DNA of 64,000 bases from contig NC_089312.1 in the NCBI RefSeq assembly GCF_036669915.1, forward strand, positions 29,970,330 through 30,034,329, given 5' to 3'. A program made the position numbers and the translations under genes. The DNA comes from Pocillopora verrucosa. Lineage: Eukaryota; Cnidaria; Anthozoa; Scleractinia; Pocilloporidae. Each line of letters begins with the position of its first letter. Within the stretch, counting starts at the first letter, position 1. Of this stretch, positions 24,158 through 53,875 are shown in pieces. The notes under the pieces were generated by a model. The model saw only the letters and a program-made list of their open reading frames with translations, had not been told where the DNA came from and made no database searches.

Positions 24158-24358
24158 GGGTAAGTTTCTAAAGAAACTGTGGTGCTACGTCGGTGAGAGA
24201 GTATAGCAGGTAATTAAGTGTTAACAACTGGGTTGAAAAAGTAAAGTAGCCACGGTAAAGGGTAAAAAAGCTGACGTTTCGAGCGTTAGCCCTTCGTCAG
24301 AGCGATAGGGGCTAACGCTTTTCAACCCAGTTGTTAACACTAAATTACCTGCCAGAGT
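24158..24358 (-). mobile_element. PLE/retrozyme-like terminal element with hammerhead
   Basis: Begins with GGGGTAAGTTTCTAAAGAAA (also at 19494) and contains inverted arms 24206-24239 and 24319-24352 (34 bp, one mismatch) around a hammerhead motif. No coding sequence. Structure fits a PLE terminal repeat cut loose from its body. Confidence 0.65.
24270..24303 (-). ncRNA. Hammerhead ribozyme, intact core
   Basis: Minus strand: stem I GCU/AGC, core CUGACGA, stem II GGGC-UAAC-GCUC, GAAAC, then GUC with predicted cleavage before AGC. Every conserved core base of a minimal hammerhead is present with a very short stem III, as known from PLE-associated hammerheads. Activity is inferred. Confidence 0.8.
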
Positions 24359-24603
24359 TATTCCCGGTTCGAAGCTTCCTGAAAACCACGCGTAATTTAG
24401 GATCTAATTCATGTGCTAAGATGCCAACACCTTTTACATGTTGTCAGGAAAAATCCCGTCAGAGGTGAAAAGTACCGTAACTCAGCCAAACGACAATTCT
24501 TTTTTTCTTAACTTCTTACAAAGTAAGCCTGCCTAAGTGAATAGCTTTGTGAATATAAGTAAAGGAAATCGTATGAACGCGAGTGCATTTCGTGACTTAT
24601 GGG

Positions 24604-24687
24604 CACGAGTGATGTTTTGAAAGTTCTCAAAATTGCATGAGCCGTAGGCGAGTGCAATTTGAGAACTTTCAAAACATCACGAGTGAC
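24604..24687. repeat. Palindrome abutting a MITE
   Basis: Arms CACGAGTGATGTTTTGAAAG..TTGCA and its reverse complement, about 33 bp each, separated by GAGCCGTAGGCGAG. It directly precedes the MITE at 24694. Confidence 0.7.
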
Positions 24688-24693
24688 CATAAA

Positions 24694-24842
24694 TAATGGT
24701 AATTGAACTGAGTGGAGTGCAATTTGGGCTGAAATCATACGCGTGATTCCAAAATTGAACGAGCGCGCAGCGCGAGTTCGATTTGAAATCACAAGTATGA
24801 TTTCAGACCAAAATTGCACAACACGAGGTTCAATTACCACTT
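24694..24842 (+). repeat. Palindromic MITE, GAGTGGAGTGCAATT family, copy 2
   Basis: Starts TAATGGTAATTGAACTGAG and ends GAGGTTCAATTACCA, with a GCGCGCAGCGCG centre. Nearly a full hairpin. Copies 1 and 3 are at 1378-1552 and 61694-61830. Confidence 0.7.
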
Positions 24843-25030
24843 TATTACATCCGTTTTGAAATCGCCCAAATACAGGACTTGGTCAGTTCAAATATTTTAT
24901 TAATACAATACTGAGCTGGTTTGAAATTAAATTCATCCATTTTTTGGGAGGAAAAAATAAGAGTTTTGGAAACAAAAGTTGCAAAATTTGCCATATGATA
25001 CTCCATGTCTTTCATCTTCCTGCAATATGA

Positions 25031-25280
25031 TCGGTTACTTTAAACAAGCCTTGAAGTCTGATTGGTTGTTTTGTTTTTAGTGTAGCCTCCTCACTGGGTG
25101 GGGAAAAGATGCGATTTAAAGCAAAAAATGGTGCAATTTGTGAATAAATCGCACCAATTAGAGCCAATCAGATTACAGGGACCATCAGTGATTTCAAAAT
25201 GGGTGTAATAAATTAATAAATCGCACCAATTAGAGCCAATCAGGTTACAAGGACCACTATAGATTTCAAAATGGGTGTAA
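25031..25280. repeat. Dispersed repeat with tandemly doubled end
   Basis: Related to 20329-20490. The block AATAAATCGCACCAATTAGA through GATTTCAAAATGGGTGTAA occurs twice in direct tandem (about 25143-25211 and 25214-25280), the second copy slightly diverged. Confidence 0.65.
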
Positions 25281-25730
25281 CAAAGCCCAAAATTAATACG
25301 TGATACTTGAATTTTAGTGAGATTTGAAGTTCCCTTTTACCAGTAATTGAGATGTTTGAAATACTGGTTACATGATCTGTGAATGTATGCGTGCGTGAAG
25401 TGAAACCTTTGTCACCCTCCTTAGATCTAGGGGTGGATAGGCTTAAATTTGCAGAGGCTTTTGAGTGTGTTATCATTTTATGTTTTTGAAACCCATTGAC
25501 AGTCATGGTTCATTTTCATCTTTACCATGTTTATATCTCATTTTATTTGCCATTGCGTTGCATTGTTTTAAAGTACCTTATTTTGGCAAGACAGTATTTC
25601 TTGGGGTTTAATTTTTGCCATTTTGAAAGAAGGAATTAAATTTCACAATTTTTAGTATTTTTAACTTCATATTATTTTTCAAAAATTCTGAACTTTTTAA
25701 AATTCCTAGAGAATGTGGAACAACAATTAG

Positions 25731-25943
25731 CTTTAACTCTCTACTCCCAAGATCTGATTGTTAATTCTCCCCTGTAGCTGCTACACATTTCCTTGAAAAT
25801 TAGTTATGAAAACTTGGTGCTAGATCAAGATAGCAGCATCTACCTGATAAGTTTGAATATTCTCATTACCTGTTTGCTGCAGAAGGTATGGATATTGTTG
25901 GGAGAAGTTTTATGTTAATCACCTCTGGGAGTTAAAGGGTTAA
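25731..25943 (+). repeat. MITE family B, copy 1
   Basis: CTTTAACTC at one end and GGGAGTTAAAGGGTTAA at the other. Interior TTGTTAATTCTCC, GTAGCTGCTACA, GATAAGTTTGAATATTCTC is shared, reversed, with 50437-50645 in THYN1 intron 3. Confidence 0.65.
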
Positions 25944-27309
25944 ACAATACTTAAGAAACAATTATTTGCCTGTCAGTGAATGTTGATGAACAATCCCCTT
26001 CATCTAAGAACTTATTAACCAGTGTACACTTTGCCTTTGATGACTAATAGTTAGATATAGATAGAATTAGTAGATTTTGTTTCTGCATGAGTACATAATT
26101 CATATGAACAGTTTCAACAAATATTATAGGATTATTTTGAATATACAGGAAGGTCCCTTGGAATTATTACTCTAGATAATTGGCAAGAAGCAGACAAACC
26201 TTTTAACAAACTTAAATGGTTAAGTTGGTTGCTTTACCGTTCCAATGTTCAAACAATCTTTGATTGCATTCAAATCACTTTGAAAAGCAGGAATGAATCC
26301 TAATGTGAAAGAGAAAAGGGGTTTATTTCTATAATTGTCATCTGTATTTGCGTTTTAATTTTTATTAATCATGTAAGCAGTGTGTGCACATTAAGGGTGA
26401 ATGCATCACCCCAACAGGTGATTAAATAGTAGAAACTGATAAAATGAAAAGGAGAGAACTTAATTTCTCCTCTTGGAGTTAATCATTGTTGCCACAGTTC
26501 AGGAAAATTCACCTTGAGTAAGGAAAATTTAGATCTTTGAAATAAGTCAGTTAAAAGTGAAATCCCAGCAAAGATGAACTTATTTAATATCTTATTTTGG
26601 CCTCTAGGCCTCTTCATATTTGAATAACAATGAACTAATTATCACTGATCACTAATTTGGCTTTTGCAGTGAGAGATTTGATTCAAGTTTGAGTAGTTTG
26701 CTTTTTCAAGGGGCAATTTGTAATTGGCATGATGAATTTTAAAAATTCGTGATTGATTTTGTTCTTTCCAGGAATGTTTGTATTTCACAAGACATAATTT
26801 GCATTTGTTGTTTGTCAGGATATTAGTGAGCCACCTTGAATTGCAATTGATTTTCACAGTTCACAAGAGAAATGTTAAAAACTTAGTTAGTGCATGGTAG
26901 GTGATGTGAGCTTGGTTTCACTTGTAGTCATTTTCTTTCTATGGTTGGTATGGCCATAATTTTCGCTACTGAACCACTGGCTCCTCCTGTAGTCAAAGCG
27001 GTATTAAGCAGTTACCCATAGGGAATGGTGGGGTAACTGCTGAATACAGGTTTCAAAAAAGAGGGGTAATATAAAACATGATAAAAAAATGCCATCTCTT
27101 GCCATGGTTGACCACTTAGTGCACAAACACCAGCTCAAAAATACTACTAGTAATTGCTTAGGGTTAACATTCATTTTGGAAGAGAAACATGGATTGAATT
27201 TTACTTCTAGAGATTATTCTTATAGTTTCATTTGAGTGGGTCTGCTTTAAGTGACCATCAATGCAAGTGGAAGACAATGCAACCAGGCTGTTGGGATTCA
27301 GTAAAGGGT

Positions 27310-27450
27310 CACCATGACACCTTAATAGAGGTGATCACTTAATACAGGTGAAAATCACAGTGACAAGGAGGAAACAAATTTGCAACTTTGACAACCAATT
27401 TCTTAATACAGGGTATTGGCTTAATACTGTTCCACTTAATACAGGTGTAA
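27310..27450. repeat. Short CTTAATACAGG direct repeats
   Basis: CTTAATACAGG or close variants recur four times within about 140 bp. Related scattered motifs occur at 26990-27060. A small degenerate repeat array. Confidence 0.45.
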
Positions 27451-30164: not shown

Positions 30165-32412
30165 ATGGCCACCCCTCGTCCAAGGAAGATATTTCTCTGG
30201 TTATTTCCTTTGTTCTTATTGGCTACAATCCTGTCTGTGTACATCTTCAGTGACCATTTAACAGGGTATGTTTTGTGTGACATCATTGGAAAAGTGAAAC
30301 TTATCCATAGATCTGTACCTCTTTACTTTCTAAGAGAACCTTTAGGCAGCTAGGTTTAGTCACTGAGTGTGCAGTTAAAAAAATGCATTTCTAGATCTCT
30401 CCCTTCTAAGTCTGGTCACTTTTACTCCTGTTGGGAATAAGATATCCTTTGTTTAAGAATTATCACTGTTCAAAAAGTTCTTGAAGGGGTGCTTTCAAAC
30501 ATGAAAAACTGACTTGGTAATCTGAGGTAAGGCTTTGCACCAATAGCCTTGATGTAATGGCTGAAATTAGCAGTAAAAGCTCACTTTATTAAGTTTTTGA
30601 AACTATTGTGGTAGGTGCTTGTGTGTGTTGCCTGCAGAATGTGGAAATTGTTTTTAGTTTGTGAACTTTTGGGTATTGTTTTGTCATATGTAAATGGAAT
30701 GAGAGATCTTACTTTTTCCCCACAGATCTAAACATTCTGTTTCATGCAATGCTTACAACTTTGAGTTCCGGAAAAGCCTTGCAGAGGATCTGAGAGAAAT
30801 CCAACAAAAAGTAAGGAAGTCATTCCTGCATAAAGAAGCACCCTCGCCAAAACTACTTTTACAGTTGGAAGAAATTGTGAAACGGCTTGATCCTGAAGTA
30901 GATCTGGCAAGTGTGTTCACTCAGAAGGGTACTGATACTGACAGCTTGGATGTATGTCCAGAGGTATATAATGGGACAAAGTTTGGTTACCCCTTCTATG
31001 AAAAGGGTTGGGTATCAATCAGCTGTACCAATGTAAAACCTCTTCGCTCTGTTGTTAGTGTCCTGGTCAACACTATTGCATATCCCAAGCAAGATGAGAA
31101 CTATATTGAAACCGTTATAAAAGGCATAACAGAGACTTACCCAACAGTTCAGGTTTATTTGGCAACAGGAAGTGTCAATGTAATGAAAGCTGCCCAAAAT
31201 TATAAAAATGTTGATGTTGTTCTGATTGATAAAGCTCAAGTAGCTAAGGGATGGAACATTCTGGTTGGGAAAGCCTCTACTCCTTATGTGCTGGTTGCAC
31301 GTGATGTGTTTCACTTCACATGGCTAACACAACTTGAGAGGCAGATTCGTGTTACCAGTCAGACACCATATGTTGAAGTTGCTGGTGGATCATACCGTAA
31401 CTTCTCTGGTCACTGGAAAGCAGGATGTGTCCAAACTACAATGAAGAACTATGTGTTAAAGTACCAAGAGGGATACTTGCACTCAAAGAATGGGTGTATG
31501 TTATGTGACTATCTTCAGGGACCTTTTGTAACCAAAACAAGTCTGTTCAAGCTTGATGAGAAGCTTCCAATTCAAGTTGTGTTTGAAGACTGGTTTTCAA
31601 GTATTATTAAAAAAGGTAGCTTAGTCATGTCATGTCCAGATGCTATGTATTTTACAACAGACTACTGGTCATATTCTAAAATAATTGATAGAAATGTGTG
31701 GACACCATTGGCTAAAAAGTGGGAACTCAATCAAGTTTTATTGCCGGGAGGGGTAAAGCATTCCTTCTCTTGTGAGGATATAGGTGTTACATGCAAAGCC
31801 AAAAGCGAACTTCTCCCTTTGTGTTGCCTTCAAGAGTATGCTTATGCTTTAGCATTTTTTCAGAAATTTGCTGAAGCTCACAATTTCACTTTTGAACTTG
31901 ATACTGGTTCTGCACTGGGTGGTGTTAAGTTTGAGGGTGTGCTTCCTTATGACCTGGATGGAGATTTTATTATCTCGACATCTGGTTTTGACATCCTTGG
32001 GAAAACTGAAACAGTTGATTATTTCCAGAAAAATGGATACACTTTGGCAGATTATGAACCCAAAAAAGGGTACGCTAGACTTTTTTTCAAGAAGTTTTAT
32101 TTTGAGATATGGAGATGGGGGGATATGTCAAACAAAAGATATCTCCCACCAGAGCTACAGAAACAAGAAACTTTCACAAAAGCCAACATTGGTGGTTATT
32201 GGATAGATACAGCATTTAGTCCTGGTTTGTTCTCTAGGAATCGATATGGAAGAGAAATCCTCAAACACTCTCAATCTTGGATCAAGCTGGGCTTATCACA
32301 CAGCTTTATTGAATACAATCCTGGAGGCTTTGAGCTTTGTAAAAAGCCAGAGCATCATGCATGCATACACAATTTCCCTGCTGACGGCAACATTCCATTT
32401 ATGGTAAATTAG
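30165..32412 (+). CDS. FKRP-like LicD-family transferase, tandem copy 1
   Basis: Predicted type II Golgi membrane protein related to fukutin-related protein, which transfers ribitol-5-phosphate in vertebrates. Exon 1 30165-30265 encodes a short basic start and one membrane anchor (residues about 9-28); exon 2 30726-32412 encodes the rest; the join GG|A gives a 595-aa protein. After a stem comes a GT-A-like half (TPYVLVARDVFHFTW, GSYRNFSGHWKAGC), then the LicD half: LLPLCCL, FELDTGSALGGVKFEG, and the acidic motif Y-D443-L-D445-G-D447, equivalent to the DxD metal site of FKRP. Vertebrate FKRP is about 495 aa, so the stem and inserts are longer. Acceptor and substrate cannot be read from sequence. 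Copy 2 lies 10 kb downstream on the same strand with the same exon layout. Confidence 0.85.
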
Positions 32413-33759: not shown

Positions 33760-34389
33760 ATAATAAAAAGATTTCTTGGCTGTTTCGTTTCAAACGCGAG
33801 GCAAATGAAGTAAATTTCTCTGTCTTGTTCTGGTATTATTAAAATTGAAACATTGCTTAAAAAATTGAGGACAGTTACCAGAAATGCATTTATTAACTAA
33901 TTTAAAAGTACGTTCGTCTCTTCTCGACTGTAACTCAGGCCATTTAAGATCCATTAAAGCTTTGTCACTATCCGTAGATCTCGAAACAATTTTGAATGCC
34001 CTCCTTTGAAAATTATCCAGCAGTCTGGCATTGCCCACTCCACAACAGTTCCATACAGTGTCGCCATAGTCAAAAATTGGATGGATAAATGATAGATATA
34101 AAGTGTTGGCAGCATGACAAGTTAAATCTCTTCGTAATCGAGATAGCATACCTAATCTTTTGCCAGCTTTAGATAAAATGTACTGAATGTGGGGAGCCCA
34201 AGAAGTAGTCTCATCAAATATATTACCAAGATAAGTGAACATGTTTACCCGTTTTAAACTTTGTCCATGAAAAGTAATATCAAAGTATATTAAAGTTCAC
34301 ACGGCAACCAGGTGGACAATCAGACATAGTTTGATGCTACACTGGTTTGCAAATTTAATGAATGTAACCGAAGAAGTTACAATTCATAG

Positions 34390-34432
34390 ACCCAACGTTT
34401 CGACACTCCTGTCTAGTGCCTTCATCAGGGGT
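34390..34432 (-). ncRNA. Hammerhead ribozyme of the PLE, intact core
   Basis: Minus strand: stem I ACCC/GGGU, core CUGAUGA, stem II GGCACU/AGUGUC with loop AGACAGG, GAAAC, and cleavage triplet GUU. All required core bases are present. The opposite inverted repeat has stem II and GAAAC but lacks CUGAUGA, so only one end carries a full ribozyme. Confidence 0.8.
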
Positions 34433-34475
34433 GATCTAAACGCTGCAACAAGAGGTCCTTTTATATGATCACTAA

Positions 34476-34856
34476 TTAGTGGCCTTTTTTTCTGACGAGG
34501 TGTAAATAAGCGTCAGGAAGCGGACCGCCATCGTCACGATTTAAAGGAGCGTGGGCGGAGTTAATGTGCCAAGCCTCCAAACAAAGGCGCTGGTGGTAAC
34601 GCCGATTAGTGGTGATAATTTTAGAATTATCCCACCCATTTGTATGGTTGGTTAGGCATGTGTTCTCCGATAAAGCTGAATTTTCCTTTTTGCAAAGAAA
34701 AACCGCTTTTCGGTGCTCTTTTAACCGTGTACCAAACTGGCGTTTGGTCTGTCCGATGTATTCGTTGTCACAGTCATTGCAAAGAATAGAATAAATGGCG
34801 TCGGTTCGTTGTTCTTTCGTGACAGGATCCTTAGGTTTGGCGAAAATATGCCCCAA
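34476..34856 (-). pseudogene. PLE GIY-YIG endonuclease segment
   Basis: 126 codons: AIYSILCNDCDNEYIGQTKRQ holds the GIY-YIG-like signature (YSI..EYIG), followed by FGTRLKEHRKAV and CLTNHTNGWDNSKII. This is the nuclease that nicks target DNA in endonuclease-bearing PLEs. The frame is open to a stop at the left end, but it is detached from any RT. Confidence 0.8.
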
Positions 34857-35480
34857 AGTCTGAAAAGGTTGTTTTTTTTTTTTCTAGGCACTAGACAGGA
34901 GTGTCGAAACGTTGGGTCTATGAATTGTAACTTCTTCGGTTACATTCATTAAATCTGCAAACCAGTGTAGCATCAAACTATGTCTAATATCAAAGTCTTT
35001 ATGTTTGGACAGTTTAGAATGAGTTCCAAATAGCATGGCTTCAGTTTTGGTGGTATTAAGAAACAAGCTGTTTACTTGAAGCTATTCACCCAATGTATTC
35101 AGGTCCTGATTCAGATTGTCTTCGATGACTTTAGAGTTAGATCCGGCACAAAACAGAACGGTATCATCTGCGTATATAAGCACATTACAAATCTTAATGC
35201 AGAGGGGCGAATCGTTGATATGAATAACAAAGAGTAGAGGGCCCAATATGGAACCTCGTGGAACACCAGATGTTATGTGTGGAGGATCAGATGAGGCACC
35301 ACCGACGCCAACAACTTGGATGCGGCTAGACAGATAGTTTTCAAACCAGTTTAGCTCTTTGCCTTTGATTCCAAGAAAGTGCAGTTTCCTAAACAAAATA
35401 GAATGATCTATTGTATCGAATGCCTTACGCAAGTCCACAAAAACTGCTCCCGTCATAAAACCCTGATCAATATTTCGCCG

Positions 35481-37663
35481 GATTGTGACCCAGAAAAGCG
35501 AACACAAAAATTTTCTAGAGTAACAATACGCTGGCGCGCGCGCCAACATTAAACAAAGACTACAAGGAGCCTCCTTAAAGGAAAATAACCGCTGTCTCGC
35601 AAAATAAGTGAAAGATAATTGAAAAGTTTCTAGAAAGCAGTAAAAGCTGTGAGACCACATGGTCGAGGGTCTCCAAGGGTTCAACCGGTAGCCTTTAAGT
35701 ATAAAAATTGTCAAATTTTGACTAATAATCGTCAAAAAGTTAACTGTTGGAAAAATTTCTGGTGACAACAATTTAGATGGAATGTTATTAACCGTCAGCC
35801 GTAAAAGCCATCACCTCGTTGAAACCCTCTTGGCTCTGAAAGCCTTAAAGCACCTACTCATTACAACACATGCGCAGAAGTTTGACCACTTGGTTGTAAC
35901 ATGTAGTATTAATTTTTTATGATGCAATCTCAGTCATTGCACCTACGCAGCTTTCGGTTTATTGGGTACTCGCTTTCGGTTATCGTTTTTGGAAATTCTT
36001 CGGGGACTTTTCACCAGTCTGACACCTGAAGAGTCATAGAACACGTCAGTTACTTAACGTTTTCTTTCCTTTTTCGTTCCCTTCACTTTACACTGCAATG
36101 CAGTTAGAGCCTGATGAGTAGGTTACAGCTTTTAATTTCCTTCCGCACCGTGCACGATGATCATCTGTCATTTTGTGTCACTCTGGGTGAATAATGTAGA
36201 CAAGCTACATTAATGGGTTGAAATGACCATTGTAGACGGTATAGATTATTAGGCGGGAGATTGGGTTCCGCTCTCTTGTAGGCTCCTTGGCAGCCCGCGG
36301 GGGCTCAGTGGGATGTCACGGTACGCTACACCAAAGTTCTCTTGGCAGAGTGTTGCGTGACATCCGAACAGGCATTCTTGTTTCTTAAGATATCATTTAT
36401 TTTTGGCCATGTGTTTAGAGAGACGATTATGGTGGCAAGTGATTACAGGTGGCCCAGGTGTTAAGAATAGGGCGCTCTACGAGAAAGAAGCTCGAGTAAA
36501 ATGATACACAGCGGCTCGAGCTCCTGGTGGAGAAACCGTCCCAAGTCTCTCGCAGCCTTACTACTCGAAGCCACGAATAACTCCCAAAACTGTGGTGCGT
36601 GCTAGGATACCATTCAAAAAATTTATCTTCACAGTAGCGTTTCCTCATTTTTGGATTAGGTGAACGACCCTGTTTAGCCGGCTTAGCTACTTCTTTTGGA
36701 TTTGCTGAGAAAGCAGTGGCTATGAAGTAAGTCCTCAACGCGTATAAAACATATGAATCCAAATATTTCCTAAAGAAACCGACCAGAATTTTGACGAAGC
36801 AAACATTCACTGACTCGATATAGTTGGGGTTAACTACTTGGGAATACCTGACCATGGCTTTCTGTACCGCATTAATTCGATTTAACGCCGCGGCGTTCGT
36901 TACTTTTTTTTTAATTCGAGTGCAGCGTCTTAACGAGGGCGGCGTTTCTTTAAGATCCAATTTTTTTCTTGCAAACGATAGTATGTGTTTAGTGTTTGTC
37001 TTAAAAGTCTTTTTAGATCGTTCTCAATTTCACAATTTGCATGTTAATACTACCACAGCGATAGTTTAAGTGAATAGAGCGAATAAAGATCTGATGTCGG
37101 ATATGCTTTCTCGACATCAGACCTGGTACATACAAAAGGATTTGTGTCTGGTTCATTGAAAATTTAAAACTGCGATCGAAGCATTGATGAATGCGTGCTT
37201 TTTGAATCTATTATCCGAATAAACGCCTCATCATGTTGCGGCGTTTATTCGAGGGCGGCGTTTATTAACATTTCTGTACTAAAATGCAGTGTTTATTCGA
37301 GGGCGGCGTTTAATCGAATAAATACGATATGCAAATTTACGAATGAGAGAGAAAATGAACCCTCTGATAACTAAGACCATTAATAACTTTGGGAATCTCA
37401 ACCAGATGAAGTTCAGAATGACACTGAATTTACAGCTAGTTAGTTTTCTTATTGCGAGTAAAAGCACAGTGATGTCATGATTGGTACTTTAGTGATTACT
37501 TAGAGTGTATCAAAGGGGAGGTCCTGATCCTGTTTCACTCACAATTAAAATTTTAAAAAAAAAAAGATTCATGCATCATCAATATAAAAGGGAAAACTTC
37601 AAATTTCTCCTCTTGTGTACAAGATTTCTGGGAAATCTGAAATTCACAAGTCATCTCACGCTT
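35481..37663. other. Intergenic, repeat-scarred, no gene supported
   Basis: A 177-codon minus-strand frame at 36427-36960 has no recognisable domain and partly overlaps a degenerate GCGGCGTTT repeat, so it is not called. The rest shows no exon or RNA gene. Confidence 0.4.
37222..37325. repeat. GCGGCGTTTATTCGAGG repeat
   Basis: GCGGCGTTTATTCGAGGGCGG or close variants occur two to three times, with decayed relatives at 36886-36948. Probably a fragment of a dispersed element or small satellite. Confidence 0.5.
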
Positions 37664-38130
37664 ATATTAAAGTTCACATGGCAACCAGGTGGACAATCAG
37701 ACATAGTTTGATGCTACTTTGGTTTACAGATTTAATGAATGTAACCGAAGAAGTTACAATTCATAGACCTAATGTTTCGACACTCCTGTCTAGTGCCTTC
37801 ATCAGGGGTGATCTAAACGCTGCAACAAGAGGTCCTTTTATATGATCACTAATTAGCGGCCTTTTTTCTGACGAGGTGTAAATGGCTTCAGGAAGCAAAC
37901 TGCCATCATCACGATTTAAAGGAGCATGGGCGGAGTTAATATGCCAAGCCTCCAAACAAAGGTGCTGGTGGTAACGCCGATAAGTGGTGATAATTTTAGA
38001 ATTATCCCACCCAATTGTATGGTTAGTTAGGCATGTGTTCTCTGATAAAGCTGAATATACCTTTTTGCAAAAGAAAACCGCTTTTTGATGCTCTCTTAAA
38101 CGTGTACCAAACTGACATTTGGTCTTGGTC
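37664..38130 (-). mobile_element. Second copy of the GIY-YIG PLE end, truncated
   Basis: Closely similar to 34287-34760 over the left tail, inverted-repeat arm and GIY-YIG segment. Similarity stops near 38130, so the right inverted repeat is missing. The coding part is frame-broken (a frame at 37761-37955 retains EAWHINSAHAPLNRDDG). Its hammerhead is damaged. Confidence 0.8.
37767..37809 (-). ncRNA. Hammerhead ribozyme, probably inactive
   Basis: Same fold as 34390-34432 with CUGAUGA, stem II and GAAAC kept, but the cleavage triplet is AUU instead of GUU and stem I is weakened (ACCC opposite AGGU). Confidence 0.6.
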
Positions 38131-41958: not shown

Positions 41959-42030
41959 AAGAGTTGTGTGTATTTGTGAAAAAAAGTTAGTTGATTAGTA
42001 ATCTTGTAATACCAAACTTTGCTTGTAGTC

Positions 42031-42640: not shown

Positions 42641-45355
42641 ATGTCTATTTTTCCTCAGTCTTGGGGAGTAATGTTGATAGCATGCCCAATACTCATGTTG
42701 GTAATGGTCATGTCCTTATTTGTAATCAGCTCACATTGGATTGAAAGCTACAGGTAGATATATTTGGCTTTTTGTGAATTTGTTATTTAACTAAACCTCT
42801 CCTTAACCTTTCCTTGGGCTGATGGCTTCATAAACAAGAAAAAAGTATTTAAATACTAGATCAGAGGTAGTGCTCTCAATAACTGGAATAAAGTGATAAT
42901 GGAGGCATAAATGGTATGTTACAGCCACAGCATGTAAGCTAAGGCAACAGTGGTAATAACACTTGCTAAGATCTTTACAACTTAAGGTTACTTTCCACCT
43001 TCAGTGGCCGAAAAAATTGATTTTTCTTTTATTTGAATAAACTGAATTCAAACTTTTAACAAAATGTTTCCACAAAAATCTTTTCTGAAATCTTTAAAAG
43101 CAACTGAATTATTTAGAAAACATATTTTCAAATTAAAGGTAGTAAATCAGGTGGGTGAGTCCCCTGGGGGAACTTTAGCAGCAACCACTCTTTTTGGGGC
43201 TCATTTTTCATGTTATTTCTGTATCTTGTCCACATCGCACACTTGACAAAAATTACAGGAGGAAGCCCTTTGCTTATAAAAAAAATCTTTGAAGATTTGC
43301 AAAATGTTTGGGATCTGTTTGGTGATTTCCAACACAGTTGATTAAACCCTTTACACTCTAATATTCTCCATACTGTTCTCTATAAATCTCCTAAGGACAA
43401 GGAGAATGTGTTTAACAATCAAGAGCTTCTTTAGTGGGTGATCATTTCCTTTTTTCTCATGACCTTAAACTGTGATTCAGGGGTGACACTGTAAGAAGAA
43501 ATTAGATGCTGTTCACTGTTTAGGGCCCAAGAGTTGATGTGTAGGGAGTAAGGAACAAAGTGGTAATAAACCACAGCTTAATTTCAACTGTTTAAAATCT
43601 TTACCATAACCATTATGAACTTGACAATAGACTGTATTTAATACTGTTTCTTTAAAATATGTTTAAGGCATAAATTTTGTCTCTTACAGGCCATGTGAAG
43701 AGACCCTCAAGTTACAAGAAAGTCTTGTAAATGAACTTAGTGACATTCACCAACAATTGCAGGAATTCCTCCTGTTGAAAAAGGAACCATCGAAAGAATT
43801 GGCTGAGCAGTTAGAAGAAGTTATAAAACAGCTTGATAGAAAGGAAGCTGTGGAAAGTGTGGGCAACAATGATACTATTTTGGATGTGTGTCCAGAAGTT
43901 TACAAGGGGACAAACTTAAGCTCCCTTGAGAATGTTTGGGTGATGACCAACTGTACCAATGTTAAACCTCTTGATTCTGTTGTAAGTGTTCTGGTCAACA
44001 CTGTTGCATATCCCAAGCAAGATGAGGGCCATATTGAAACCATTATAAAAGGCATAACAGAGACTTACCCAACAGTTCAGGTCTATTTGGCAACAGGAAG
44101 TGACAATGTAATAAAAGCTACCCGAAATTATAAAAATGTTGATGTTGTTTTGATTGATAAAGCTCAAGTAGCTAAGGGATGGAACATTCTGGTAAGGAAA
44201 GCCTCTACTCCTTATGTGCTGGTTGCACGTGATGTGTTTCACTTCACATGGCTAACACAACTTGAGAGGCAGATTCGTGTTATCAGTCAGATACCACATG
44301 TTGAGGTTGCTGGTGGATCATACCGTAACTTCTCTGGTCACTGGAAAGCAGGATGTGTCCAAACTACGATGAAGAACTACGTCTTAAAGTACCAAGAGGG
44401 ATACTTGCACTCAAAGAATGAATGCATGTTCTGTGATTATCTTCAGGGACCTTTTGTAACCAAAACAAGTCTGTTCAAGCTTGATGAGATGCTTCCAAAT
44501 GAAGTTTTGTTTGAAGACTGGTTTTCAAGTATTGTTCAGAAAGGCAGCTTAGTGATGTCATGTCCAGATGCTATGTATTTTACAACAGATTACTGGTCGT
44601 ATTCCAAGAGAACTGATAGAGATGTTTGGACCCCTTTGGCTAAGAAATGGCATTTAAATAAAGTGCTTCTGTCAGAAGGGATAAAGCATTCCTTCTCTTG
44701 TAAAGACATTGAAGTTACTTGCAAACCTGACCATGAACTACTCCCTTTGTGCTGCCTAGAATGGTATGCTGATGCCTTGGCATTTTTTCAGAATTTTACT
44801 GAAGCTCACAATCTAACATTTGAACTTGATTGTGGTTCTGCATTGGGTGGTGTCAAGTTCAAAGGCCTTATTGCTTGGGACATAGATGGAGATTTGACTT
44901 TCCTTTATACTGGTATGAACATTTTTGGTGAAAATAGAACAATTGATTATTTCCAGAACAATGGGTACAAGTTACTGAGTTTTGAACCACAAGTGCAAGG
45001 AGGTAGTGCTGGATATGTGAATGTCCATTTCAATGGGTTTGATATTGAAGTATGGGGAATGGGTGACCTGACAAATAAAAGATATCTCCCCAGTGAACTG
45101 CAGAAATATGAAACATATACAAAAGCCAACATTGAAGGTTACTGGATTAATACACCATTTTCTCCTGGTTTGTTCTCAAGAAATCGCTATGGAAGAGAAG
45201 TGCTTAAACATTCTCAGTCCTGGCGTAGGACAGCTTCTAAAGACAGTTGGATTAATTATAAGTCTGGTAGGTTTATGCCTTGTGAGAGGTCAGGTGGTTA
45301 TGGTTGTGTACATGATTTCCCTGCTGATGGTAACATCCCATTTTCAATAACTTAA
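42641..45355 (+). CDS. FKRP-like LicD-family transferase, tandem copy 2
   Basis: Paralog of the 30165 gene. Exon 1 42641-42753 encodes a membrane anchor (about residues 9-30); exon 2 43690-45355 encodes the stem and catalytic parts; the join AG|G makes Arg38 and a 592-aa protein. The GT-A-like half is nearly identical to copy 1 (KGITETYPTVQVYLATGS, STPYVLVARDVFHFTW), while the C-terminal LicD half is clearly more diverged. LicD landmarks: LLPLCCL, FELDCGSALGGVKFKG and W-D435-I-D437-G-D439. The frame is intact and key acidic residues are kept, so both copies look functional. A MITE family C copy sits in the intron. Sharp contrast in divergence along the gene hints at gene conversion. Confidence 0.85.
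43342..43530 (+). repeat. MITE family C, copy 2
   Basis: TTAAACCCTTTACACTC start, CCATACTGTTCTCTATAAA, AGGAGAATGTGTTTAACAATC, TTCAGGGGTGACACTGTAAG. In the intron of FKRP-like copy 2. Confidence 0.65.
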
Positions 45356-46598: not shown

Positions 46599-49500
46599 TT
46601 AAATTAATTTTCCACAACTGGCATCACCCACTGGTTTGTCCTCCAAACTACAAATGTATTCAAATTCATCTGAAATGATAAAAGGGGAAATAAAATTTTA
46701 TGTTAACTTTTCGAGGTTTACAAAACATTTTGGGGAATAATTTGAGTGCAAATGACTTGAGAAGCAGTGAAACAATTAGTGACTTGAGAGTTACTTCATT
46801 CATTTGCTATGTTCTTTAAAGGAAAGTGCTTTGAAATTTGTGTGTGGCAAATATGAAAATGAAGAGGATAAGTTTCTTAAAAAAAAACTAAGGCTTGTCG
46901 CTGGGGTGTTACAGGATAATTTGGTTTTATAGCAACCGAGTTGATAGTTTAAATTGGCCATTCTGAAGAGTTTTCATAGCTGACATTTAGAGAGTTAAAA
47001 CTTCCTCATTCACTCCAACAACGACTTAACGCTGGAAATAAAATTAAATTATCTTGCAATGTGAAAATAGATATTTCACTAGTATGACAAAAGAAATAAA
47101 TATCAAGTTAACCTTGACTTTATCACTCTACTGGGTTCTTTACAAGCATTTTGAATGTGTACTTTTAAAGAAGTTTACTAATAAATGAGTAACTACATCA
47201 ACTAAGTAATTGCGTCATGTAGGTGTCATGCCAACGGCTAAACATAATTATAAAGTTAAATTTGGTGACTATTTTTTCACAAAAGACAAATTAAACAGAC
47301 ATCAAGTTGTTAACTATCTAATACAGTAGTACAATTTGCATGATTTACCTTCAGTAACAGGTTGAACTGATAGTCGGGCTGAAGTGAAGAGTGCCACTGA
47401 CTTTAATGGACCATTGGTTGCCTTGTGTTCCTATTAAACACAAAAACAAACCATCAACAAACAAACAGGTTACTCCAAGTGTTGCGTACTTGCAGAAAGC
47501 ATTTTACCAGTGAGAGCCAATGCTTTGCAGCTTTTGTTCTGATAAAGGGCTATGCTCCAAACATCAGCTTTGAAACTCTTTACAGTGACCCATTTACATC
47601 ATCAACTTGATTAATGATACTAAATTACCTTTTTATATTCTCCCTCTGACCCAGCACCACAGTTCCTTTAGTACCTGTAATCTATGCCATTTAAATTTAA
47701 GAATTTGTTCATGCTTAGCGTGCATATTTCGAGTTATGGATGCACACAGGAAGTTTGGAGAGCTTGAAAAATGTGTAAGAGTAGCTTGAATCACAGCGGA
47801 GAGCAACTCTAGCTTTTGAGAGCTCTCCAAACTTCCCAAGTGCATTCATAACTCAATATATACACAGCTAAAAGCATGAGCAAATTCTTTTATAACAGAG
47901 CGACAACAAGGATCTGCATGAAGAAGCCTTAATTGTGATAGAGTGCAAAATTCTCACAATGCACAAAAAAAAGGAAATAAATGCCCCTATTAGCTGGTCA
48001 AAAACACAGCACATTTTATACTTTGGTTTGAGCGAGAACATTTGATCCAGTTAACCGATAACTGTGAATGAAAAGCTCAAAATTTACAGGGAAAATGGAG
48101 AAAATCAAACCCAAATGTCATAAAGTGTCACTAAAAAAAATGCTCACGTCATCTTATTTATGCATGGACGTGCATAAATAAAGATTTTGTTCATAGCGGC
48201 TCAATAGGACTTATATAGGGGAAGCATGCGTGCTGTTATAAAATTACTTTATGGATGAGTGAGACAGCTTACTTGATGAAGAGCTTTCAGTTCTTGTAGA
48301 GAAATAAAGCGTTTCATCATACGGACAAACTTTACATCCACCTACAAAAAAAACCAGTAAATATCAAAAACACAGTTTGCACCAGAAGAGGTACTCAAAA
48401 AAGAGAGGCCTAATTTTCTGATGGTCTGTAAAATTCTCCTTCCAACTTGCCTTCTATTTCTTTTAAAACAAGGAGAATTTAATGTTGTATCAAAAGACAT
48501 GAAGCTTTGATCATTCTATGCTGCCCTTAATTAAGATACACCTTCAGTCATCACTCCTGCCATAGGATACTTTATAGTCAACCAATCCATTATGAATGCA
48601 ATACCTTTGTGAAAAAAGATAATACATTCAACCTTTCCTAAGTTTACAAGTCTTCTTTCAAAGTTATTTAATGTTGCCATTGCTACAACTTACCATGAAC
48701 CATTTGGGGTTCTCTTTCTTAGAATTCCTTAAAAAAAAATAAATAATGAATCACTAAATGTAGATCAACTAGTTAAATATATCAGCAGAACTTGAATGTT
48801 TGTTCACATTTCCTCTCTCACTATCCGTGATAACATAGTGAGTTACTGAGATTTGCATATGCACATTTTTTCAAAGGCACCACAAAATGACCTCATGCAT
48901 GGTAATAAAGGAAGGTGCTGACTATTAATTTTGTTATGATCATCCTCTAGAAGGATTGTGATGGCAGACCTTTGGAATACATACAAAAAAAACTTGTTGG
49001 TGAGCCTGCTGGTTCATGTATACAACAAACACCCAGCATACCGATATCAAAAATAGCACAGAGATACAAGTAGAGGACGAGAGGTGGGAATGGAAAGAAA
49101 AAAGATTTCATCTCAAATATTTGATCAATAATTTTGAAGCCTGTTATTACTTACGGGTCATAATGAGGATCTGCTTTATCAAATTGTGTATAGTCCACAT
49201 AACTTTCTTTGACAATCTACAGGTTCAAATGAAAGTATATCAGTTTCTAAATAATGGTTGGAAGATTGACCACACATGACCATAATACACTTTTCTGAAA
49301 TGGCTTGCTCTGGAAATCTGAAATCTGGATAAGTTTCATTTTGGATCACCTTCCCATCCTCCCCTAATTTTGTTATACTTCCTTGTCTCATCCCTGAATT
49401 CACTATGTACTCAAACAACCATCTTTGAGCAGTTTCATCCAAATCATTTTTTTCTAATGGAGATATATGTTACCTGGCTTCCCCCCCCCCCATTTTTTTT

Positions 49501-52500
49501 GTAATACAAACATCAAATTAACCAATATCTGCAAGATTTAGAGGACTGTGGAAGAGAGCAAGAGATTCTTCTCGTAGAGGAGGAAGTAAGCTGTAGACTC
49601 CTACATCTTTTGGGAAGATTTAGTCTGTAAAGTAGGTTGTCAACTATGGGGTTGAAACCCTCTTCAATGTGAGATTTTACCTCCACAATTGCAGCAATGC
49701 CAGGGTTTTTACAGTTACTGTGATAAAAGAATGCAAGGTGACCACTCTTCATTTGATCTCGCATAAAATTTCGAGCCTGAAATGAAAGTAGAATACAACC
49801 AAAAGAGATAAATTCCAAGTTCATTTGCAAAATTTACCAATCATTAAATAAATGCACCTTAGCAGAGATGAAATCATTTTGCTGAGCAATTTCTCTGGAA
49901 AAATTACATTCAACTGATGACTGAGTTGACCCTGAATATTTTGACCATAAAAAGGGACCCTTAAATATTTATTAATTTTTAAGAACTTGGTTCCTCTCAT
50001 CAGGTTTGAGCAAGAAAGGAAGCAAGAACTATTTTACTGTGTAATTTATTACAAATTGATGCTCCTCAAATAAAATATCTATATCTTAATTAATCCTTTG
50101 AGCCTCATTAGCAACTTGCTTCTAATCTCTCCGTGTGATATTACCTCCACATCACACATTAAAGTAACAAAAATATAGAAAACAATCACTAGAGAAGCTC
50201 TTGATTGTTAACCAAATTCTCCTTGCCAGCAACTTAGGAAATGTATAGAGAACAGTATGGAGAATATGCATAGTGATGTTAGGGTGTGAAGGTTCATAAT
50301 AGATGGGAAAATTTTCATATACCTGGTAATTTCTCACACCATCCCAGCAGGCTGTTTGATTGGGTTCTTTCTTTAAGTCCTCAATGCCAAACTAAGATAA
50401 TATTCAGAGAACACTCCTGATTACCACTTACTGTTATTAACCCTTTAAGTGATTAACAAGTAACTGCACCCTATAATAACTAAAAATTATCCAGCAAACA
50501 GGTCATGAGAATATTCAAACTTATCAGGTCAAAGTTGTTACATGTATCTTGATCTGACATCAAATTCTCAAAACTTATTTACAAGGAAATATGTAGCAGC
50601 TAAAGGAGAGAATTAACAATCAGATCTTGGGAGTTAAAGGGTTAAGTAAGATTTATATTAAGTGGCTGGATAATACATTAATTGTAAGATCATAAAAAAA
50701 TTATACATCTCACAAAGATACAGTGTAAGTGAAAGACATTTTCTTGGTTTTAGGCATAGGAGTGTGGATGGTGTGGCATTAGTAAAGGGGAATTGGAAAA
50801 TTAACTAGAATGATAAGTATAAAAAATGGTAATTCTACTAACTTAAAGACTGTGGCACACTTGAAGTTATTGAGAACTTTCATCTCCCATAAAATTGAAG
50901 GAACTTAAATAATGCAGAATAAATAAATGGATTTGGGTGAAATGAGGTAATGCTGGTGTAAACAGATTATCAAGGCTGAAAACACTTAAAATGTACAAAG
51001 GAAAAGAATCACAGCCTCACTTAAATTGTTTTATTATTGTAAATGTTGACTTCTAGAAGTAAGTTGTTGTACCTTTACATCTACTCCTTTCTCAAATCTG
51101 CTTTCAGGTTCAGATTTCATAAGCCATCTTGAGTATTGCACTTCCTGAAAAATTCAATGATTTAAAGTTGCAAATTCATCCCTTTTCATAAAGAAAAGTC
51201 ACCCACAGTCACTGACAAAAATATAATAGTAACTACTTTAGTTAAGAATGTCATTTGTTTCTTAATCTTTTGAGATATAGAAAGCATTGAAATAATATGA
51301 GTGGGGCCTATTTATACATTATCATATTCAGGTTTATTTGCTATTATACTTGGATTTGTTCTAGAAGTGGGAGGGGATTTTGTACAAACAGAAGAACCCC
51401 GCTAACTCAAACTCTGTTAACCTGAACCCCCCCTGTAACTCAAACAAGGTCTGATTTCTTTTCAACCCATTTTTTTCAATCATTTACTATCAGCTAACTC
51501 AAACACCCAGTAAATCAAACCATCTATTCTGTCCCTTGGGAGTTTGAGTTACCAGGGTTGTACTGTATATCATGACAAAGTTCTTAACCCTTTGGCTTGG
51601 AATGATTCATTGATTAATGAACTAAGTAACTTTTACTTCCTTTTGATTTTATTAACCAATTCTATTTAATATTAAAATAGTCTCGTAATAATTTTTCACT
51701 TAGATTCATTTATGCATATCTTATAAATTTATCTTGTAACAACAGACTGAGCAATAAGTCCAACAACATGTTACCTACTATGCTTTTTACACAATATCCT
51801 GTTTACAGGACACAAAAACTGTTGAGATCAGTAGTAACCGCACACTTACTTTTTTTGGAGTCTTGCTTGGTTTGGCACTCTCCTCTATGGAGAGAGTGCA
51901 GTTCATTAATTTATCAATAAACTGCATTTTCAAACAAAATTTAAACAATTCCCACAACATCTGTCATTTAACCTTGCTGGTAAAGTTAGATTCCCTTCCA
52001 GTAGTGTAGCAAGCAGCACCTAGAGTGCCATATAATACAAGCAGTCCCTCCTTTTAAGCAGAGTCTGTCATGCATGTCAAAAAAATTTTTGAAAAAATTT
52101 ATGTTTTAAGTGCCACAGGGAGCTCTTTTTACCTTTATTCTTTTACTATTATCATTTTTGACATCGCCAAAAAGGAGGGACTGTTTTGTTTAAAGGTGCT
52201 AAGACATCCCCCCACCCCCACCCCCACCCACCCCCATCAAGTAATGTGATGTCCTATTATTCCTATTATTATGTAATCAATGCAGCAAGATGAGGGAAAT
52301 ATTAATAACGTTCACTGTTTACGGCCTAGCACTCATTAAACGTTTTGGCTGTATCAAAATACACAAGCTCTTGAAGTCCTCCCTTTTCCTATAGTAAATA
52401 GTTCGAAATAGTAATTTCAGTAATTATTATGGCTCTCTGATGATAACACGTGACATACAGGGCGGTATAGTATTCGAAGCATACTAGCATGCAGGTTTCA

Positions 52501-52756
52501 AGTTCTGTGCAGATAGATAACATAACTTTCTCCTCGACTCCGATTAAGACTTCCGCTCAGGTTGTCGAAACGTCAATCACCACTACCGACAACAGTCCTC
52601 TTCAGGACTACACTCACCCAGACGATCAAACTACACTATTACATGTTACCCCCGAGTTCAAACCATTTACTGTATAACTAAATGTCTTACTCTACCTCTT
52701 TTTGCAGTTTTTGAATGTTTGTCACTGTCGACCTTCGGCTTCTTCTTAGGAGGCAT
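46599..52756 (-). CDS. THYN1: THYN1, EVE-domain nuclear protein, ten exons, complete
   Basis: Thymocyte nuclear protein 1 homolog. Exons: 52696-52756, 51850-51884, 51073-51144, 50323-50391, 49681-49776, 49155-49216, 48694-48727, 48273-48341, 47349-47430, 46599-46669; 651 nt, 216 aa plus stop (vertebrate about 225). The first 36 residues are Lys-rich (MPPKKKPKVD), a likely nuclear signal. The EVE (PUA-like) domain follows: SRWLMKSEPESRFEKGVDVK, TACWDGVRNYQ, ARNFMRDQMKSG, LAFFYHSNCKNPGIAAIVE, then VDVKFVRMMKRFISLQELK and SVALFTSARLSVQPVT. EVE domains in this family are proposed to bind modified nucleobases; here that is inference. Introns carry MITEs and two decayed hammerhead-bearing relics. 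Confidence 0.95.
47450..47620 (+). mobile_element. PLE terminal relic with decayed hammerhead
   Basis: In a THYN1 intron. Plus-strand CTGATAAAGGGCTATGCTCC followed by AAACATCAGC lines up with the 24270 ribozyme, but CUGANGA has become CUGAUAA and GAAA has become CAAA. The flank GAAACTCTTTACAGTG matches the usual continuation of such ends. Confidence 0.55.
47700..47888. repeat. MITE with ~65-bp inverted repeats
   Basis: Left arm CATGCTTAGCG..GAGTTATGGATGCAC..GGAAGTTTGGAGAGC and right arm GCTCTCCAAACTTCC..GTGCATTCATAACTC..AGCATGAGCAAATTC. In a THYN1 intron. Confidence 0.7.
50090..50297 (-). repeat. MITE family C, copy 3 (reversed)
   Basis: Reverse complement of 43342-43530: GTTAACCAAATTCTCCTTG, TATAGAGAACAGTATGGAGA. 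Lies in the THYN1 intron between exons 4 and 5. Confidence 0.65.
50437..50645 (-). repeat. MITE family B, copy 2 (reversed)
   Basis: TTAACCCTTTAAG to GGGAGTTAAAGGGTTAA; interior GAGAATATTCAAACTTATC and ATATGTAGCAGCTAAAGGAG are reverse complements of 25731-25943. Lies in THYN1 intron 3. Confidence 0.65.
51389..51567. repeat. Pogo/Tigger-like MITE in THYN1 intron 2
   Basis: Ends CAGAAGAACCCCGCTAACTC and GAGTTACCAGGGTTGTACTG are imperfect inverted repeats next to TA, with internal AACTCAAAC motifs. This matches the look of Tigger-derived ends. Confidence 0.55.
52489..52675 (+). mobile_element. Hammerhead-bearing repeat relic in THYN1 intron 1
   Basis: Contains GTTGTCGAAACGTCAATCAC and CAGTCCTCTTCAGGACTACA. 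The expected upstream core CUGAAGA is mutated (CCGATTAAGA), so the ribozyme is decayed. The small open frame across it is a by-product. Confidence 0.5.
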
Positions 52757-52967
52757 CTTGAATCCCCTCCTAGCGCGCGCGGTGTCGGCTCTCTAGACTG
52801 AGCCCGCATTTCTTTCGTCTATTTCATGTGGTAACGCAATCCAGTGGTTTGCTTAACCGTCACGTCGATTTCTTAAAGAGACCTTGAGCTCTCCAGGGTA
52901 TTAGCGGGCTTCTGATTTATCCGTACATGCGCACAGTTCTCAGATATGAAAGAAAACGATGGCAATC

Positions 52968-53028
52968 TCGAGTACCGGGTCATTTTGGCTCCTTGGCAGC
53001 GGAGAAGCCAAAATGACCCTGGACTCGA
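52968..53028. repeat. Perfect-looking hairpin upstream of THYN1
   Basis: Arms TCTCGAGTACCGGGTCATTT..GGCT and its near reverse complement AGCCAAAATGACCC..CTCGAGA, about 24 bp each, around CCTTGGCAGCGGAG. About 210 bp upstream of the THYN1 start. Confidence 0.65.
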
Positions 53029-53179
53029 GAGTGACACGATAGTGAAAACACGTAGCTTGGCTACGGTCATGATAAAACTCGTTGTTTGTATTTTGACTCG
53101 CCCAACAGGCTCGTCAAAGGTATATTTGTAAAAATACTCAGCTGTACTGACACACCAAAACGTATAATAATAAGGCCCT

Positions 53180-53875
53180 ATATATATATATAATTGTGGG
53201 AAATTGTACCAAATGCTGTAGGAAAGTGCTCAATACACGTGAGTGTAGAGCGAAACACAATTCAAAATGACTAAAATGAAACACGCATGATTCTCTGTTA
53301 CTCTGAGTTTCATGCTTACGCACTCGTCAGACAGATTTAATGAAAAACATTCTTGTAGGCTAATTTATATATAGAAAAAAAAAGGTAGCTGCTGATTACA
53401 ATAGGTTTTTGTAATATAATAGGTGAGAAAAAGCGAAAATTACAATGGATGTGGGTGTATTAATGAAGGACAATGGGGCAGTAGGTGTGAATATATTGAC
53501 GAAAGTCTATTGTAGCAGGGAGGCGTCAGATGTTCTTTAAGTAAAACTTGTTTTCGTGACGCCATTTAGATATAAGTTCGGATCTTTTATTCCGCAAGTT
53601 GTTGCTGTTGGACTTAATAATCATGAGTTTTTCGGTCAGGCAAAGGTCGCATCTTTTCGTCGTGTTGTTGTAGGGCCTGGCTCTTGCAATAATGGACCAT
53701 TTTATGTTGAAGTTTACAGAGTTGTCCTTCAGTTGCCAGATGTATTTGGATAGTTCAGTGCTGTTAGTGTATTTTCTGTGTCGGAATGTAACCTTGTGTT
53801 GATTAAATCTTTGTTTAAAAGCTCCTTCGGTCAGTCCAATGTAGTTCTTAGGGGTCGTTTTGCCACATGCAGACT
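53180..53875 (-). mobile_element. PLE 3' segment: GIY-YIG, 3' end, hammerhead
   Basis: Minus-strand half of a rearranged PLE. From about 53873 down to a stop at 53526-53528 it encodes STACGKTTPKNYIGLTEG, FKQRFNQHKVTFRHRKY, ELSKYIWQLKD and KRCDLCLTEK, the GIY-YIG endonuclease of the YRDD-type PLE family. Then come about 180 bp of 3' sequence, a hammerhead motif and a TA-rich end. It is joined tail-out to an RT segment on the other strand. Confidence 0.82.
53296..53340 (-). ncRNA. Hammerhead ribozyme motif in PLE end
   Basis: Minus strand: UCUGU, core CUGACGA, stem II GUGC-GUAA-GCAU, GAAAC, then CUC and an ACAGA that can close stem I with UCUGU. Core and stem II are good; stem I needs an internal loop. 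Confidence 0.65.

What the first reader, a model, noticed from the sequence alone, without database searches (positions are those of the whole stretch)
24270..53340. Several hammerhead ribozymes from at least three PLE-type ends
Reading both strands for CUGANGA..stem II..GAAA gave good motifs at 24270-24303, 34390-34432 and 53296-53340, a damaged one at 37767-37809, and decayed relics near 19600, 47539-47570 and 52545-52590. They have different stem II sequences, so they belong to different families, and all lie in PLE-like or inverted-repeat contexts. Hammerheads in PLE termini are established; this mix of live-looking and decayed versions in 35 kb gives a decay series.
Basis: partly seen in the sequence, partly recalled or inferred. 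Interest (0 to 1): 0.7.

Follow-up and report, generated by a model that had tools for sequence, protein, structure and literature searches.

The report
Self-cutting RNA motifs in jumping genes
These are hammerhead-type self-cutting RNA motifs of the sort found in Penelope-like jumping genes; the kind is known, but here the motif seems to sit right where the element's own RNA begins, which would make a long-puzzling function testable.

Summary
A structural scan finds exactly three hammerhead folds in the window, at 24.3, 34.4 and 53.3 kb, all on the minus strand; dinucleotide shuffles average 0.005. The 37.8-kb copy is the damaged twin of the 34.4-kb one. Relics at 47.5 and 19.6 kb are decayed copies of the 24.3-kb family; the 52.5-kb relic is weak. 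Rfam reaches no gathering score. The 24/34/37.8-kb motifs lack stem III and carry one extra A before stem II, a layout that I also read in the published, protein-dependent hammerhead of an Anolis Penelope-like element. The own genome holds 2888 matches of that core pattern against 3 for the reversed pattern, and stem I covaries between families (4 of 4 pairs). So: new members of a known kind. Wrong: each site as its own family; the 'decay series' is only partial. Beyond the finding: in three unrelated families a TATAAA lies about 37-39 nt before the core, and in two of them many short copies begin just before the hammerhead. I infer that transcription starts there, making the ribozyme the RNA's 5' end. 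The 34-kb family supports this weakly, several subfamilies show no TATA box, and no transcript was seen.

The parts
24265..24308 (-). Stem-III-less type I hammerhead with one extra A: stem I GCU/AGC, CUGACGA-A, stem II GGGC-UAAC-GCUC, GAAA, CGUC; predicted cleavage between 24273 and 24272
   Evidence: genome family
24206..24352 (.). 34-nt inverted arms (24206-24239 / 24319-24352, 97%) that bracket the 24.3-kb hammerhead: inverted-twin form of the repeat
   Evidence: signs of an inverted arm in 7 of 20 other copies
34386..34436 (-). Stem-III-less hammerhead with one extra A: stem I ACCC/GGGU, CUGAUGA-A, stem II GGCACU..AGUGUC, GAAA, CGUU; predicted cleavage between 34394 and 34393
   Evidence: 403 genome matches of a pattern made from it
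34460..34465 (-). TATAAA, first T 37 nt before the core C of the 34.4-kb motif
34286..34883 (-). 3'-terminal PLE-like fragment: GIY-YIG-like frame 34476-34883, then hammerhead, then tail
34886..34988 (+). Inverted copy of the tail (98% to 34319-34421), cut off inside the hammerhead at the start of stem II
   Evidence: truncated match 34893-34913, E 0.031
37663..38125 (-). Second fragment of the same repeat family, 92.9% to 34286-34750
37763..37813 (-). Damaged hammerhead: same core and stem II, CGUU to CAUU, first stem I pair lost; TATAAA kept at 37837-37842
53290..53341 (-). Hammerhead without extra nucleotide and with a short stem III: stem I UCUGU/ACAGA, CUGACGA, stem II GUGC-GUAA-GCAU, GAAA, ACU-CAG-AGU, GUA; predicted cleavage between 53299 and 53298
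   Evidence: dispersed repeat
53364..53369 (-). TATAAA, first T 39 nt before the core C of the 53.3-kb motif (overlapping TATAWA matches also at -41 and -43)
47531..47573 (+). Decayed copy of the 24-kb family (CUGAUAA-A, CAAA, CAUC)
   Evidence: E 8.8e-6, not in training set; repeat match
19632..19679 (+). Decayed copy of the 24-kb family; 5' part and stem I recognisable
   Evidence: E 2.5e-4, not in training set
52535..52578 (+). Weak candidate relic: CCGAUUA-A, stem II GAC..GUC, GAAACGUC, stem I GACU/AAUC with one mismatch
   Evidence: chance level 0.097 per shuffle; not found by R2
22522..23274 (-). Reverse-transcriptase-like frame (YIDD motif; PLE-like by recollection); link to the 24.3-kb motif not shown
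   Evidence: Pfam RVT_1 E 0.007, below cut-off

Best explanation
The motifs are hammerhead ribozymes of Penelope-like retroelements (PLEs) or of repeats of that type. Three unrelated families are represented by good copies in the window. A full unit reads TATAAA - hammerhead - tail. I propose that transcription starts about 30 nt after the TATAAA, some 7-11 nt before the hammerhead core, so that the ribozyme forms the 5' end of the element RNA. Cleavage after GUC/GUU/GUA would remove a leader of about 35-43 nt (with the cap, if polymerase II makes it) and separate units in tandem transcripts. Reverse transcription is primed in the tail downstream of the hammerhead and runs back through it; runs that reach the RNA's 5' end leave short [hammerhead+tail] copies, singly or as head-to-head inverted twins. 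Shown here: motif structure, abundance, stem I covariation, TATAAA spacing in three families, the 5' ends of short copies in two families, and inverted arms in the 53-kb family that end earlier than the direct arms. Inferred: transcription start, cleavage, its function, priming in the tail, and dimer or protein help.
For: Descriptor hits against shuffles. 2888 genome matches against 3 for the reversed pattern. On 20 motifs picked by me for diversity (19 distinct rows), 4 of 4 stem I pairs show changes on both sides and the covariation score is 0.382 against 0.146 shuffled, 0 of 500 shuffles as high; the pair L029/L030 has a perfect 5-bp stem I ATCGC/GCGAT. The PAc template RNA printed in PMC11167929 (passage) reads, by my parse, CUGAGGA-U-stem II-GAAACGUC with stem I CCU/AGG, and the paper reports cleavage when PAc protein is added (passages). 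TATAWA lies at -37 at 34.4 and 37.8 kb and at -36 to -38 in 16 of 29 genome copies, at -38 in 10 of 22 copies of the 24-kb family, and at -39 (also -41, -43) at 53.3 kb; window background 0.0012 per position, TATAAA alone 0.00065. In the 24-kb family 14 of 25 copies share only 2-8 nt upstream of the core, 1 shares 50 and 10 share 79-80, ungapped. In the 53-kb family 30 of 60 genome matches start at query 58-63, 8-13 nt before the core. 12 of 13 inverted rows leave the shared sequence within about 8 nt after TTTTGAACT, while 18 of 20 direct rows run on for at least about 60 nt.
Against: In all four monomers the minimum-energy fold is not the hammerhead but a rod in which the core pairs with the cleavage strand (-12.3 against -7.0 kcal/mol at 24 kb, -12.9 against -11.8 at 34 kb, -11.5 against -5.2 at 53 kb). 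In the 34-kb family only 3 of 29 copies end within 2-11 nt of the core; the others extend further. Of the 20 motifs L029-L048, 16 show no TATAWA in their 60 upstream nt and one has it at -55. The window's own 24.3-kb copy carries none. 5 of those 20 lack the first stem I pair. Rfam does not recognise the 24- and 34-kb motifs. [quoted passage not shown] The 24- and 53-kb families were not shown to be joined to a PLE gene. No RNA data were available.
Confidence: 0.6

Rival explanations
1. The motifs are ordinary PLE hammerheads as already published, and the closeness of TATAAA, copy 5' ends and ribozyme has no functional meaning: short copies end there because the reverse transcriptase stalls at the folded motif or because palindromic joints are favoured.
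For: Inverted arms can end inside the motif (34421; 24285 in L013); the motifs form stable rods; most 34-kb copies do not end there; 16 of 20 diverse motifs have no TATAWA in 60 nt upstream.
Against: A stall at a folded ribozyme should fall on its 3' side, whereas the short direct copies of the 24- and 53-kb families include the whole motif and end 2-13 nt beyond the core's 5' side; TATAAA stands at nearly the same distance in three families with unrelated sequence.
Confidence: 0.3
2. The conserved structure is the rod hairpin (core CUGANG paired with CGUYRG), acting as an RNA or DNA signal, and the hammerhead likeness is incidental or dead.
For: The rod is the minimum-energy fold in all four window motifs, and the two changes at 37.8 kb keep and strengthen it (-14.6 against -12.9). 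85.2% of cells pair in the rod structure against 80.9% in the hammerhead structure, 82.7% against 72.4% for the distinguishing helix. L031-L033 (N7 = A) break the rod and the first stem I pair alike.
Against: Only 1 of 7 rod core pairs has a two-sided change, and that one cell is the 37.8-kb copy, against 4 of 4 hammerhead stem I pairs; L029/L030, L046 and PAc (N7 = A or G) break a rod pair and keep stem I. CUGANGA and GAAA do not vary among the A1 rows, but all fetched rows were selected for those letters.
Confidence: 0.07
3. The 53.3-kb hammerhead belongs to a non-autonomous retrozyme (small circular RNA made from direct tandem repeats), not to a PLE-type element.
For: It has no extra nucleotide and a short stem III, nearer to canonical type I; no PLE gene was found beside it (frame 53526-53906 has no Pfam match); the coral A. 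millepora is reported to carry 1508 canonical type I hammerheads in retrozymes (PMC7229834 passages).
Against: No direct tandem copies in the window; fetched copies are single units or inverted twins; half of the matches begin 8-13 nt before the core, not at the cleavage site.
Confidence: 0.2

Closest known systems
PAc hammerhead (Poseidon PLE of Anolis carolinensis, PMC11167929, passages)
   Same: No stem III, GAAACGUC, one extra nucleotide between CUGANGA and stem II (my parse of the printed RNA), short stem I CCU/AGG, a TATA-like run 43-45 nt before the core
   Different: The extra nucleotide is U, not A; the reading frame starts at stem II; protein-assisted cleavage was demonstrated there and not here
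Minimal type I hammerheads of PLEs and Terminons (Cervera and de la Pena 2014; Lunse et al. 2017: neither held; known through citing passages in PMC7761336 and recollection)
   Same: Stem-III-less, in PLE pseudo-LTRs, thousands per animal genome, thought to act as dimers
   Different: Whether those papers describe the extra nucleotide or a position at the RNA start could not be checked
Metazoan non-LTR retrozymes (PMC7229834, passages)
   Same: Type I hammerheads in small dispersed units
   Different: Retrozymes are direct tandem repeats of about 220-350 bp; here single units or inverted twins
NbRZ1 plant retrozyme promoter (PMC12029980, passages)
   Same: LTR promoter whose transcript is cut by the hammerhead so that the 5' end is lost
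   Different: LTR retrozyme of a plant; start site mapped by experiment with an inactivated ribozyme

Membership tests
Type I hammerhead ribozyme | Core CUGANGA...GAAA...NUH with stem II between | tested here: met
   24.3, 34.4 and 53.3 kb; the first two with one extra A
Type I hammerhead ribozyme | Stem I, open ended, supported by covariation | tested here: met
   4 of 4 pairs with two-sided changes, (24/34-kb types only; sample picked by me)
Type I hammerhead ribozyme | Stem III | tested here: inconclusive
   Absent at 24/34 kb (ACGU only, as reported for PLE minimal forms); 3 bp at 53.3 kb
Type I hammerhead ribozyme | Rfam gathering score | tested here: not met
   best 19.0 bits against 34 at 53.3 kb
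Type I hammerhead ribozyme | Self-cleavage | not testable with these tools
   needs transcripts
Penelope-like element | GIY-YIG endonuclease beside the motif | tested here: inconclusive
   34 kb: PF01541 19.6 bits, cut-off 22.6; 53 kb: none in the frame tested; 24 kb: none among the ten long frames scanned
Penelope-like element | PLE reverse transcriptase in the same element | tested here: inconclusive
   RT at 35082-35810 is closest to R2/LINE chains in the PDB; weak RT frame at 22522-23274, link not shown
Penelope-like element | Hammerhead in repeated terminal (pLTR) segments of one element | tested here: inconclusive
   34286-34750 and 37663-38125 are 92.9% direct repeats each with the motif, but what lies between is LINE-like, so they may be two fragments
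Retrozyme | Direct tandem repeat of a hammerhead unit | tested here: not met
   for the window; for fetched copies of the 53-kb family: single units and inverted twins

The most novel reading that the evidence does not exclude
In several unrelated PLE-type families the hammerhead is placed at the transcription start (TATAAA 37-39 nt before the core), so that each new transcript begins with a ribozyme that can cut off its own leader and cap; the abundant short and inverted-twin copies are reverse transcripts of exactly this 5' unit.
Probability: 0.5. Interest if true: 0.62.

Novelty: new member of a known kind. Interest (0 to 1): 0.45.

Why it matters
[quoted passage not shown] Short copies would then record template 5' ends in the genome and can be counted. 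The extra nucleotide before stem II, seen in the 24/34-kb families and (as U) in the PAc hammerhead, is a concrete feature for covariance models, since Rfam does not find these motifs here.

Tried and rejected
Rejected: one complete PLE between 34.3 and 38.1 kb, because the reverse transcriptase there is closest to R2/LINE enzymes; the two repeats are taken as 3'-terminal fragments. Rejected as the conserved fold: the rod hairpin. Rejected as a general rule: copies always ending at the hammerhead; the 34-kb family does not follow it.

Led nowhere: viral-contig scans for the 34-, 53- and 24-kb motifs (0 matches each) and genome-contig scans for the 53- and 24-kb motifs (0 each). The energy of a double-hammerhead dimer could not be computed (one search returned an invalid value). 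My first structure string was one column off (model R1 was built on it and not used for any search); corrected. My note places stem I of the 53-kb motif at query 61-65; the right place is 66-70 and the report uses that. A draft said that the 53-kb family has two discrete 3' ends; one search shows a common end for inverted arms only, since the fetched stretches stop close to where the direct arms may end. Two planned genome counts did not complete: the pattern without the extra A, and the genome-wide TATAAA-to-core distance. Cervera 2014, Lunse 2017 and the Terminon paper are not held.

Literature limits: I do not claim that the promoter-hammerhead spacing in PLEs is unpublished. Seven papers were seen as passages only (PMC11167929, PMC7229834, PMC6155905, PMC7761336, PMC11014351, PMC10085705, PMC12029980); others only as listings.
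Full report
What is there. The window lies in a 353-Mb genome of 52 contigs whose name is not given; that it is a coral is my recollection of such repeats, not a result. A structural scan of both strands finds three hammerhead folds, with cores at 24300, 34428 and 53330 on the minus strand. Of 400 dinucleotide shuffles, 2 gave one hit and none gave three; the scan rules were set after seeing the motifs. The first two lack stem III (GAAACGUC, GAAACGUU) and have one extra A between CUGANGA and stem II. The third has no extra base and a short stem III. The 37.8-kb copy is the damaged twin of the 34.4-kb one; the repeats around them, 34286-34750 and 37663-38125, are 92.9% identical. A covariance model built from 20 motifs (17 fetched, 3 of the window) finds 47531-47573 and 19632-19679 as further, decayed members (E 8.8e-6 and 2.5e-4); its other matches are the three training motifs, a truncated piece at 34893-34913 (E 0.031) and two at background (E 0.32 and 3.1); 53.3 and 52.5 kb are not among them. 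The 52.5-kb candidate rests on a loose rule that hits in 26 of 300 shuffles.

How common. A pattern made from the 34-kb motif occurs 403 times in the own genome, 0 times reversed. The general pattern with the extra A occurs 2888 times against 3; it does not test stem pairing. In 200 kb of 20 blocks along one contig, a scan allowing one mismatch and either 0 or 1 extra A found 6 motifs, all 6 with the extra A. The 40 scored of 1419 candidates of the 34-kb segment are 97-100% identical over 219-221 nt of it, so that family looks young; these are the best ones. The 53-kb segment gave 60 matches from 40 scored of 233 candidates. The planned count without the extra A did not complete, so the absence of such motifs is known only for the 200-kb sample.

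Hammerhead or rod. In all four window motifs the lowest-energy fold is a rod in which the core pairs with the cleavage strand. By pairing percentage the rod is not worse (85.2% of cells against 80.9%). By compensatory change it is: stem I of the hammerhead shows two-sided changes at 4 of 4 pairs (whole-structure score 0.382, shuffled 0.146), the rod at 1 of 7 core pairs, from a single sequence, the 37.8-kb copy. L029/L030 have a perfect stem I ATCGC/GCGAT and break the rod. In the 24 distinct motifs the first three stem I pairs form in 18, 22 and 21, the three variable rod pairs in 24, 21 and 19. Of the 20 motifs, 14 have three or more stem I pairs in a row, 1 has two and 5 lack the first pair. 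The fetched rows were selected by their core letters, so core conservation was not tested.

Relation to a tested ribozyme. PMC11167929 prints the template RNA of the Anolis element PAc (passage). By my parse it reads stem I CCU, CUGAGGA, an extra U, stem II, GAAA, CGUC, AGG: the layout of the 24/34-kb motifs. The paper reports that this hammerhead cleaves with PAc protein and not without, that single C3 and G8 mutants are inactive and the double mutant is partly restored, and that cleavage mutants do not affect insertion (passages). In the passages I saw, the extra nucleotide is not remarked on.

Anatomy of the units. The 34.4-kb motif follows a GIY-YIG-like frame (Pfam 19.6 bits, cut-off 22.6) and is followed by a tail. 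An inverted copy of that tail, cut off at the start of stem II, sits at 34886-34988. The 24.3-kb motif is bracketed by 34-nt inverted arms; 7 of 20 fetched stretches of its family show signs of an inverted arm upstream, two pairs of them being the two arms of one locus. In the 53-kb family many fetched copies are head-to-head twins. There, 12 of 13 inverted rows leave the shared sequence within about 8 nt after TTTTGAACT (the thirteenth, L059, looks unrelated), while 18 of 20 direct rows run on for at least about 60 nt, to near the end of what was fetched. PMC11167929 reports two adjacent reverse-transcription start sites and extension on both target strands (passages), which could produce such twins; that link is my inference.

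Where copies begin. In the 24-kb family, 25 copies fall into two groups: 14 share only 2-8 nt upstream of the core, 10 share 79-80 nt (the most compared), and 1 shares 50, by ungapped comparison (L095/L096 and L107/L108 are two arms of one twin each). In the 53-kb family 30 of 60 matches start at query 58-63, 8-13 nt before the core; 12 start later, 10 earlier and 8 at query 1, the window itself among them. In the 34-kb family only 3 of 29 copies end 2-11 nt before the core, so the rule is not general. TATAWA stands 38 nt before the core in 10 of 22 copies of the 24-kb family (not in the window's copy), at 36-38 nt in 16 of 29 of the 34-kb family, and at 39, 41 and 43 nt at 53.3 kb; the background is 0.0012 per position, 0.00065 for TATAAA. 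Of the 20 diverse motifs L029-L048, 3 have it at 37-38 nt, 1 at 55 and 16 not at all within 60 nt. A TATA box acts about 30 bp upstream of the start (recalled), which puts the start where the short copies of the 24- and 53-kb families begin.

Reading. The motif is a known kind: minimal type I hammerheads of PLEs, thousands per animal genome (PMC7761336 passages; for A. millepora PMC7229834). The part that may be new is the position: three unrelated families place the ribozyme at the likely transcription start. A plant retrozyme whose hammerhead removes the transcript's 5' end, so that its start could be mapped only after the ribozyme was inactivated, is a precedent of another type (PMC12029980, passages).

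Noticed in passing
window 30773-32400 and 43719-45343 (+): Two long reading frames (569 and 562 aa) in direct repeats 79.6% identical; weak matches to a cholinephosphotransferase model (first frame, 27.1 bits, cut-off 225) and to LicD (second frame, 15.2 bits, cut-off 22.6).
   Followed up: partly
window 23528-23782: A 255-nt near-perfect palindrome (92%) that scores as MIR4371/MIR6274 on both strands, below gathering; looks like a palindromic repeat, not a microRNA.
   Followed up: no
window 35082-35810 (-): LINE/R2-like reverse transcriptase fragment lying between the two PLE-like ends.
   Followed up: partly
window 12565-13815 (+): 416-aa frame with a weak Cohesin_load match (E 0.0043, below cut-off), perhaps a host gene exon.
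   Followed up: no
genome lists: Minus/plus pairs of hammerhead motifs tens to thousands of bases apart recur: inverted twins are a common form of these repeats.
   Followed up: partly
window 52960-53036: 34-nt inverted repeat with 9-nt loop downstream of the 53.3-kb hammerhead, unrelated to it as far as seen.
   Followed up: no
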